In this document: in pieces, positions 52,201 through 55,200 of the stretch | Layout of the letters: each line of letters opens with the position of its first letter | Position numbering within the stretch: position 1 is the first letter of the stretch | Source of the DNA: Piscicola geometra | Taxonomy: Eukaryota; Annelida; Clitellata; Hirudinida; Piscicolidae | Direction: 5' to 3' | Length of the DNA stretch: 64,000 nt | NCBI GenBank assembly: GCA_943735955.1 | Contig: OX030958.1 | Location: 11,267,626 to 11,331,625, forward strand | The notes under the pieces: generated by a model | What the model saw: the letters and a program-made list of their open reading frames with translations, nothing else | Told to the model about the DNA's origin: nothing | Databases searched by the model: none | Made by a program: the position numbers and the translations under genes

Positions 52201-55200
52201 AATCCAACCACTTTACCTACATCACTCCAACCAACCAACCACTCCACCAACCAACCACTCCACCAACCAACCACACCACCAACCAACCACTCCACCAACC
52301 AACCACTCCACCAACCAACCACTCCACCAACCAACCACTCCACCACCAACCACTCCACCAACCAACCACTCCACCAACCAACCACTCCACCAACCAACCA
52401 CTCCACCAACCAACCACTCCACCAACCAACCACTCCACCAACCAACCACTTCACCAACCAACCACTCCACCAACCAACCACTCCACCAACCAACCACTCC
52501 ACCAACCAACCACTCCACCAACCAACCACACAGGCACGTACATTGACGTGAGGCCAACGTGCAAAGACAAGGGTTCGAGCAGATGCGAGTGTGTAGCCGT
52601 GGTGGGAGGGGGCAGGGAGGAGGGGCAGGCAAAGAGGGGGGGCTGTGGCGAGGAGTGCCTCAACAGGATGGTCTACACCGAGTGCTCGGCTCAGTCGTGT
52701 CCAGCTGGAGACAGGTTCATTTGTGTGCATCGCACTTCAATGCGTCTTTCAACTTTTTACTTTTTATTGTTTTTACTTTCGAACTTTAAATCTTTTTTAC
52801 TCTCTTTTTTTTCTATAGTCACCGCTTCAACACAACCATCATCATCATCACCACCAAAATCATCATCATCATCACCGACCACTCCAGGTGCACCAACCAA
52901 CGGATGCAGCGGAAGGAGTGGGTGGAGGGTCTCCAGAAGTTCATGACCTCGAACAGGGGCTACGGGGTCAAGGTCACCCAGGCTATCAGGGCTGGTGAGT
53001 TGGCCTTTAGTTGTTTTTATAATAATCATTCATCTGATGAATTCTGAGGCAAGCTCTGCATAACAGCTCCAGGATCCTCCTCCTAACGTCTCTCCACTAA
53101 CACCCCTTCCCTCTATTAAGACCTCTTCCACTAGCCCCTTCTTCCATCCCTCTCCACCCACCCATCACACAGGCCAATTCATCATCGAGTACTGCGGCGA
53201 GGTGGTCTCGGAGAAGGAGTTCAGACGCAGGATGAGCGAGGAGTACACGGGCGAGGAGCACCACTACTGCCTCTCGCTCGACAGCGGCGTCGTCATCGAC
53301 GGCTACAGGGTCGGCAACGTCAGTCGCTTCATCAACCACTCGTGCCAGCCTAACTGCCACATGGAGAAGTGGTCGGTGGTTGGTTGGTTGGTTTTTGGGG
53401 GTTTGTGGTGGTTGGTGATTGTTTTTGCCATTTATAGTCCATTTTTGCATGTTTAATTATAATTTAATGATTGCGATATTCTTTAATAAGTTGTTTTTAA
53501 TTATTTATTTTTACAAACTTTATGAAATAAATCTTCTCTAATACTACCTCCACCACAACCACCATCGTCATCACCACCACAACCACCACCACCATCACCA
53601 CCATCACCACCGCCACCATCACTACCACCACCACCGCCATCATCACCACCACCACCAGGAACGTGAACGGCATCTACAGGATGGGCTTGTTTGCGCACGA
53701 AGACATCTCAGCGGACACCGAACTCACGTACGACTACAACTTCCAGGCGTACAACCTGCTCTCCCAGGTGTGCTTGAGGGTCGTTTGGACTTTATAATGG
53801 GGCGAAAAGATTAATGTAATGACTTGAATCATCGAAATACATAGTTTATATAAATATTTTAAATAATATTTACAAAAATAATTTAAATTTATTCGAAGTT
53901 AATTCAATTTTTTTATTTTGAATATTTCTGTTTTGTAGGTGTTTATTTATTTATTTTATTTTTTCGTCGCCTTCATCTTCTCCCATCAACACTTCCACAG
54001 CAACTTTGCAAGTGCGGCTCGAAGAATTGCAGAGGTGTGATGGGAGAGAAGAAGCGAAGAGTCACCCCTCCAGCTACCACCACCACTACTACTACTATTA
54101 CTACTACTACCACTGCTACTACTACTACTACTACCACTGCTTCTGCTACTGCTACTGATACTACTACTTATACTACCACTGCTACCGCTACTACTACTAG
54201 TACTTATAATAATAATAATAAGGGTGTCGATAGTGAATCTACGAGCAAAGCGCTTAACCGTTACAACACAAGAAACAAAAACAAGAAGAAAACCAGTAGA
54301 AAGGTGTTCACGTCATACCTTTATAATATTATGATTAATTGTATTCTTTTTAATATTTTTTGTTGAGCTATTTTTTTATCATTTTATAATTGTCAGTTGA
54401 TCATCATCATCATCATCATCATCATCAACATCATCATCAACATCATCATCATCATCATCATCATCATCATCATCAACACTTCAGAATCCCTCAAACACCA
54501 AAGAAAACCTCCAGAAAAACTCTTCCATCTCTTCATCATTATCATCATCATCAGCATCTGTCGCATCATTATCATCATCTCCATCATCGTCTTCATCATC
54601 ATTATCATCATCATCGAGGAGAATTAACGGAAGCACCTTGAAGCAGGATAAAATGGCCAAGGGAGTTTCAAATCGTTCTGATGATGATGATGATGATGAT
54701 GATGATGATGATGATGATGATAATAATGAAGATAATAATAAGGGTGGTGATAATGATCGTGCATTGAAAGATGGCTTCGTGATGGGAAGGCGGGAAAGGG
54801 CGTTGGTGGTGGAGCGGTCGTTGTTCCTGGTGAGGAATCGACGCAAGGTTTGCTGGAAAAAGCACCACAAATACAACAAAACAAGTGGTGGTGGTAGTAG
54901 TAGTAGTTGCCATATTGCCAACAACAACAAGAACAACAAAACGACGTTTGGAAGTGGTAACACAAGCAATATTATCAACAGCAAGAACATCACCACCACC
55001 AACAACAACACCCCCAACAACAACACCCCCAACAACAACACCCCCAACAACAACACCCCCAACAACAACATCACCAACAACAACAACAACATCACCAACA
55101 ACAACAACAACACCCCCAACAACAACAACAGCACCACCAAGACGAACCGCACAAAGACGAACAACGAGTTGAGGGAGGCGTTGAGGCTGAAGCAGATGGC

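What the first reader, a model, noticed from the sequence alone, without database searches (positions are those of the whole stretch)
53372..53658. Copy of the ASH1 3' end inside the intron that splits the SET domain
About 110 bases at 53420-53532 match 60970-61122 downstream of the ASH1 stop, up to and including ATGAAATAAATCT. If splicing of this intron fails, the frame reads 28 further codons to TAA at 53454-53456 and meets AATAAA at 53526. That would give a transcript truncated after the NHSC motif and lacking ELTYDYN, post-SET, bromodomain, PHD and BAH. It could be an intronic polyadenylation switch born by duplication of the gene's own 3' end. Alternatively both segments could be copies of one dispersed repeat.
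Basis: partly seen in the sequence, partly recalled or inferred. Interest (0 to 1): 0.75.

Follow-up and report, generated by a model that had tools for sequence, protein, structure and literature searches.

The report
Copied gene tail inside ASH1 intron
A short piece of the ASH1 gene's own tail, with its cut-and-polyadenylate signal, really does sit a second time inside the intron that splits the enzyme's catalytic domain; it looks like an old one-off local copy rather than a mobile repeat, and nothing here shows that it is used as a switch.

Summary
Window 53419-53535, inside the 287-base intron that splits the ASH1 SET domain, matches 60970-61125, which lies after the ASH1 stop codon and ends just past the first AATAAA: 69 of 88 columns (78%) plus a 24-base block at 23 of 24. 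The score of 78 was reached in 0 of 150 shuffled windows. Within the sensitivity of the searches the pair is private: no third copy above control level in the 171-Mb genome, none in 254 kb of readable sequence around the gene. The intron is probably older than the copy: a Helobdella gene model resumes at the same exon. The read-through to TAA (53454-53456) and the AATAAA (53526-53531) are as stated. Use as a polyadenylation switch is not shown: the copy lacks the UGUA of the UTR copy, is followed by CCA repeats and lies in a short intron; a weak 5' splice site and closeness to it point the other way. Most likely it is an old local duplication that is spliced out, with at most minor premature 3' ends. 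One lead: an Owenia ASH1 gene model stops at nearly the same junction.

The parts
53173..53371 (+). ASH1 exon with most of the SET domain, ending ...NHSCQPNCHMEKW
   Evidence: Pfam SET 1.8e-12 on 53175-53453; joined exons match solved ASH1L 3ope over 118 of 118 query residues, E 3e-54; exon join
53372..53658 (+). phase-2 intron splitting the SET domain (donor GTCGGT, acceptor CAG)
   Evidence: a Helobdella gene model resumes at the same residues NVNGIYR
53372..53418 (+). G/GT-rich 5' arm of the intron, predicted to pair with the CCA-rich 3' arm
   Evidence: fold z -2.44, 0 of 100 shuffles fold as well; about 38 expected pairs between the arms
53419..53535 (+). intronic copy of the 3' UTR segment
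53454..53456 (+). in-frame TAA met if the intron is not removed
53526..53531 (+). AATAAA inside the copy, 154 bases after the intron's first base
53545..53658 (+). CCA-rich repeat tract up to the acceptor, where a downstream element would be expected
53659..53767 (+). next exon, NVNGIYR...ELTYDYN...LLSQ
60831..60833 (+). ASH1 stop codon TAG
60970..61125 (+). 3' UTR copy (source or sister of the intronic copy)
61116..61121 (+). first AATAAA after the ASH1 stop

Best explanation
An old, one-off local duplication placed about 117 bases of the ASH1 3' UTR, ending just past AATAAA, in direct orientation into an intron of the same gene 7.5 kb upstream. The copy has since diverged and lost about 40 internal bases, or the UTR copy gained them. 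The intron is normally removed, possibly helped by pairing of its G-rich and CCA-rich ends, so the copied signal is mostly silent; at most it gives rare premature 3' ends whose product, cut after NHSC..KW and ending in a hydrophobic 27-residue tail, would be catalytically dead and probably short-lived. Shown: the similarity, its rarity at the tested sensitivity, the intron (from protein similarity), the stop and the AATAAA. Inferred: the direction of copying, the age, that the intron is older, and the silence of the signal.
For: Similarity far above shuffles. The 24-base block in the genome at up to 3 mismatches: 8 matches, the two copies at 0 and 6 others all at 3, against 12 for the reversed control; 21-base block at up to 3: 28 matches, the two at 0, 1 at 2 and 25 at 3, against 56 for the control; 34-base pattern with the intronic spacing: only the intronic copy, control 0. 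Profile of both copies over 264 kb (10 kb of it masked): only the two, next E 1.9. Non-tandem local pairs of this strength occur at low rate: 4 clusters in that stretch, this one included, the best pair of each in direct orientation. Divergence 17 of 109 compared bases, JC 0.17. Signal context weakened: no UGUA in the 40 bases upstream (present in the UTR copy), 27.5% against 42.5% U in the 40 bases downstream. 98.5% of putative human intronic sites are reported as not expressed (PMC10651852, passages seen).
Against: The 24 bases around AATAAA differ at 1 site against 16 of 85 in the rest, as if the signal were kept, though not significantly (Fisher p 0.11). Used intronic sites tend to have weak splice sites and lie close to the 5' splice site (PMC10651852), which fits this intron. 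An Owenia gene model stops at nearly the same junction. The other three local pairs were not tested for genome copy number and may include repeats or a gene duplication. No outgroup DNA could be read, so direction, age and the seniority of the intron are unproven.
Confidence: 0.62

Rival explanations
1. Functional intronic polyadenylation switch: the copied signal competes with splicing at a weak 5' splice site and gives a stable mRNA for an ASH1 protein cut after NHSC..KW, lowering full-length ASH1 (attenuation, as in CstF-77).
For: AATAAA and in-frame stop present; donor at the weak end of 11 donors (-4.5, range -9.4 to -4.4) and predicted largely paired; signal only 154 bases after the 5' splice site; 23/24 identity around the signal; Owenia model P0048 ends 17 residues after the NHSC.PNC motif, the only one of 231 motif-bearing proteins (240 stored) to end so soon, and that annotation used RNA-seq, Mikado, Augustus and PASA (PMC9977687, passages).
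Against: No UGUA, CCA repeats instead of a U/GU-rich downstream element; [quoted passage not shown] five other donors of the gene are about as weak; tail is hydrophobic (best 19 residues mean 2.4), which passages of PMC12863090 link to proteasomal degradation or membrane routing.
Confidence: 0.13
2. Both segments are relics of one old mobile or low-copy element that happened to land twice in ASH1, and the other copies are lost or too diverged to find.
For: A profile search of the whole genome was not available, and at about 20% divergence the mismatch-limited patterns would catch only a minority of copies (my estimate, not from a call: 10-20%). Weak matches exist in the window itself: 20733-20776 (score 51) and, minus strand, 45789-45832 (37 bits; one of the 3-mismatch matches).
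Against: Pattern counts stay below reversed controls; profile search of the surrounding 264 kb finds no third copy below E 1.9, the two weak window matches not among its hits; score 51 is reached by 3 of 150 shuffles; no Rfam match on either copy; no A-tract and, by eye, no target-site duplication at the intronic copy.
Confidence: 0.17
3. The match reflects a shared functional RNA element kept in both places (protein- or microRNA-binding), with the signal incidental.
For: Blocks kept around changed spacing.
Against: No Rfam family on either copy; no further occurrence in the genome above control at the tested stringency; by eye the differences in the long block are spread rather than clustered.
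Confidence: 0.05
4. Chance similarity of A+T-rich non-coding sequence.
For: Both segments are A+T rich; weaker matches of the strength that shuffles reach are present in the window (score 51 at 20733-20776, 3 of 150 shuffles).
Against: Score 78 in 0 of 150 shuffled windows, maximum 52, and 0 of 2000 segment shuffles, maximum 46.
Confidence: 0.01

Closest known systems
CstF-77 (CSTF3) intron 3 polyadenylation site (PMC3708835, passages seen)
   Same: poly(A) signal in an intron with a weak 5' splice site; would give a short message
   Different: large intron, features conserved across vertebrates, tested with reporters; here a short intron, a copied signal, no RNA evidence
Immunoglobulin heavy-chain M composite terminal exon (named in passages of PMC3708835 and PMC10651852)
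   Same: splicing and intronic polyadenylation compete for one intron
   Different: two functional protein forms there; here the short product would lack part of the catalytic SET domain
Small local (non-tandem) direct duplications
   Same: direct orientation, under 10 kb apart; 3 other clusters of at least this strength in the same 264 kb
   Different: this one carries a 3' UTR poly(A) signal into an intron of the same gene; the other three were not studied further

Membership tests
dispersed or mobile repeat | many copies in the genome | tested here: not met
   8 pattern matches against 12 in control, only the two copies below 3 mismatches; 28 against 56; profile over 264 kb finds two. Low-copy, highly diverged families are not excluded.
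dispersed or mobile repeat | target-site duplication or poly(A)/terminal repeats at the insert | tested here: inconclusive
   none seen by eye in the flanks of 53419-53535; an old insertion could have lost them
intronic polyadenylation site (composite terminal exon) | AAUAAA in an intron downstream of an unspliced 5' splice site, with in-frame stop | tested here: met
   53526-53531 and 53454-53456
intronic polyadenylation site (composite terminal exon) | auxiliary elements: UGUA upstream, U/GU-rich downstream | tested here: not met
   no UGUA within 40 bases upstream; downstream 40 bases 27.5% U, 2.5% G, mostly CCA repeats. These are common helpers, not strictly required.
intronic polyadenylation site (composite terminal exon) | weak 5' splice site | tested here: met
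   U1 duplex -4.5 kcal/mol, but 5 other donors of the 11 lie between -5.2 and -4.4
intronic polyadenylation site (composite terminal exon) | polyadenylated RNA 3' ends at the site | not testable with these tools
   no RNA reads held
ASH1 histone methyltransferase gene | AWS-SET-post-SET order and ASH1L-like SET sequence | tested here: met
   best solved match ASH1L 3ope, E 3e-54; ASH1L-named proteins among the top hits; AWS read by eye in the joined exons

The most novel reading that the evidence does not exclude
A gene copied its own 3' end into the intron that splits its catalytic domain and so acquired a built-in off switch: under weak splicing the copied signal ends the message and makes catalytically dead ASH1. 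Owenia ASH1 may end at nearly the same junction, which would make this intron a recurrent site of premature ending in annelids.
Probability: 0.1. Interest if true: 0.7.

Novelty: new member of a known kind. Interest (0 to 1): 0.3.

Why it matters
If the site were used, it would be a clear case of how an intronic polyadenylation site can arise: not by point mutation but by duplication of the gene's own 3' UTR. It would also link loss of a chromatin writer's catalytic end to splicing strength. If it is silent, it is a natural test of how splicing of a short intron masks an imported poly(A) signal.

Tried and rejected
Dispersed repeat: searched by DNA query (these found each copy itself but not its sister, so they are too insensitive to count as evidence), by patterns and by profile over the region; no third copy above control. 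The pattern follows the spacing of the intronic copy and by design misses the UTR copy.

Intron born by the insertion: held less likely, because the Helobdella model P0035 jumps from GNISR to NVNGIYR, leaving out 15 residues but resuming at the same exon start, which implies the same acceptor in another annelid. It rests on a gene model, not on DNA, and whether Helobdella also has the copy is unknown, so this is not closed. The NSD-like gene of this genome (L016) has no intron at that site.

Structured RNA: Rfam gave 7 sub-threshold matches in 52500-61500, none on either copy.

G-rich/C-rich intron arms as a general rule: an order test over 264 kb was not significant (5 against 3 close pairs, p 0.25).

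Weak further matches in the window, 20733-20776 (score 51, reached by 3 of 150 shuffles) and 45789-45832 minus (37 bits), were dropped as chance level. Earlier self-comparisons (heavier masking or larger word size) did not show the known pair, with word size 7, recovers it and is the one used.

Literature: no paper in the held library has both 'intronic polyadenylation' and 'ASH1L' (0 papers); 'ASH1L' with 'alternative polyadenylation' gives 18, of which 8 were listed, and none of those 8 titles concerns this (listing and starts of abstracts only); '3 utr duplication' with three other terms gave 0.

Species: not identified. Probably a leech or other annelid, from the Helobdella and an unnamed ENA match and genome size (H. 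verbana assembly 177.8 Mb, PMC12820476 passages); but Lingula and Capitella SET domains score higher than the incomplete Helobdella model, so this is inference.

Full report
What was checked. The window lies at C4:11267626-11331625 of a 171-Mb, 66-contig genome. The gene is ASH1: the joined exons 52534-52714, 52888-52994, 53173-53371, 53659-53767 and 54001-54303 read AWS-SET-post-SET without a break, and the SET part matches solved human ASH1L at E 3e-54. The intron in question is 53372-53658, phase 2, between MEKW and NVNGIYR.

The similarity. 53419-53504 matches 60970-61056 at 69 of 88 columns, and 53512-53535 matches 61102-61125 at 23 of 24. Between the blocks the UTR copy has 38 more bases. 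The local score is 78. Shuffled segments reach at most 46 in 2000 trials; the window without this intron, shuffled in 400-base blocks, reaches at most 52 in 150 trials, both strands. Chance is very unlikely.

How many copies. For the 24-base end block at up to 3 mismatches the genome has 8 matches: the two copies at 0 and six at 3; the reversed control has 12. For the 21-base block at up to 2 mismatches it has 3 (the two at 0, one at 2; control 1), and at up to 3 it has 28 (control 56). A 34-base pattern with the spacing of the intronic copy finds only that copy. The DNA queries found only themselves, but as each missed its sister these count for nothing. A profile of both copies run over the window plus 100 kb on each side, of which 10 kb reads N, finds the two and nothing else below E 1.9. 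Two weaker matches in the window (20733-20776, score 51; 45789-45832 minus, 37 bits) are of shuffle strength or close to it. So this is a two-copy match within one gene, not a dispersed repeat at the tested sensitivity; a tiny or very diverged family remains possible.

How unusual. In the same 264 kb, pairs 1-10 kb apart with at least 66 bits and the same minimal complexity form 4 clusters (7 of 268 pairs pass the complexity filter), this one included; the best pair of each is direct. The other three were not tested for copy number, and one of them (98% over 333 bases, 4 pairs) may be a gene duplication. Short local duplication is thus not rare here. Carrying a poly(A) signal into an intron of the same gene is less ordinary but needs no special mechanism.

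The intron is probably older than the copy. The Helobdella gene model P0035 goes from GNISR straight to NVNGIYR. It drops 15 residues that the window has, but resumes exactly at this exon, which implies the same acceptor; I infer that the predictor missed the donor. Whether Helobdella has the copy is unknown, so it is not proven that the duplication did not make the intron.

Could it be a switch? For: AATAAA and the in-frame stop are real. The donor pairs weakly with U1 (-4.5 kcal/mol), and is predicted to be largely paired with the CCA-rich intron end. The signal lies 154 bases from the intron start, and used human intronic sites tend to have weak splice sites and to lie near the 5' splice site (PMC10651852, passages). 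The block around AATAAA differs at 1 of 24 sites against 16 of 85 elsewhere, though Fisher p is 0.11. Against: the copy has no UGUA in its upstream 40 bases where the UTR copy has one, and has CCA repeats downstream (27.5% U against 42.5%). Five other donors of the 11 examined are about as weak (six of the 11 were placed by eye). The intron is short, unlike the large introns described for composite terminal exons (PMC3708835, passages), and is not the last one. In human, 98.5% of putative intronic sites are not expressed. The AAUAAA itself is predicted mostly paired (unpaired probability 0.08-0.21), a weak argument since such predictions are unreliable.

The product, if made, would keep 67 of the 118 SET-post-SET residues compared with 3ope, lose ELTYDYN and the post-SET cysteines, and gain SVVGWLVFGGLWWLVIVFAIYSPFLHV, whose best 19 residues average 2.4 on the Kyte-Doolittle scale (scale values recalled). 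Passages of PMC12863090 link such hydrophobic tails to proteasomal degradation or membrane routing. A dead-end product is the likeliest outcome.

A lead from other animals. Of 240 proteins stored from the three protein searches (ASH1-like and other SET proteins, plants and fungi included), 231 carry the NHSC motif in the form searched, and one, P0048 of Owenia fusiformis, ends within 20 residues of it (...EMQKCKSADVKVRTVGV); four end within 70, the other three at 64-66. The two SET-domain searches reported more proteins than were listed (329 and 542 against 120 each), so this is not a census. The Owenia annotation merged RNA-seq assemblies, Augustus and PASA (PMC9977687, passages), so the model may be a true short isoform or a broken model. 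The Owenia junction, if it is one, seems to be one base off the phase seen here (inferred from protein alone).

Verdict. Observation confirmed; duplication reading supported; repeat reading disfavoured; switch reading open but unlikely. The finding is a sound small-scale duplication with a testable but modest functional hypothesis.

Noticed in passing
52514-52533, 52868-52887, 53153-53172, 53639-53658, 53981-54000: The five acceptors of the joined exons are C/A-rich (CCA, CCAACC) rather than U-rich; some later ones in the gene (near 55460 and 60800) are U-rich. Simple repeats form much of the introns here.
   Followed up: partly
53372-53418 with 53545-53658: The two ends of the SET-splitting intron are complementary (G/GT-rich against CCA-rich), about 38 expected pairs, looping out the copy; an NSD-like gene on C10 (L016) has a similar-looking intron. 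An order test over 264 kb was not significant.
   Followed up: partly
56195-56584 and 56799-57437: 43-base and 71-base tandem arrays inside a long open stretch downstream of the SET exons.
   Followed up: no
54400-54491 and 54660-54751: CAT-repeat/GAT-repeat inverted pair, 79% complementary over 92 bases, within what looks like ASH1 coding sequence; a neighbouring CAT/GAT stretch (54537-54736) draws sub-threshold Rfam matches.
   Followed up: no
L034:199-1228: Tandem array with a period near 80 bases, about 20 kb downstream of the window.
   Followed up: no
P0035 (Helobdella robusta HELRODRAFT_166943): Public gene model lacks the 15 residues FINHSC...KW that hold the catalytic motif; probably a prediction error at a weak donor.
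   Followed up: partly
P0048 (Owenia fusiformis): ASH1-like gene model that stops 17 residues after NHSC.PNC, near the same junction.
   Followed up: partly
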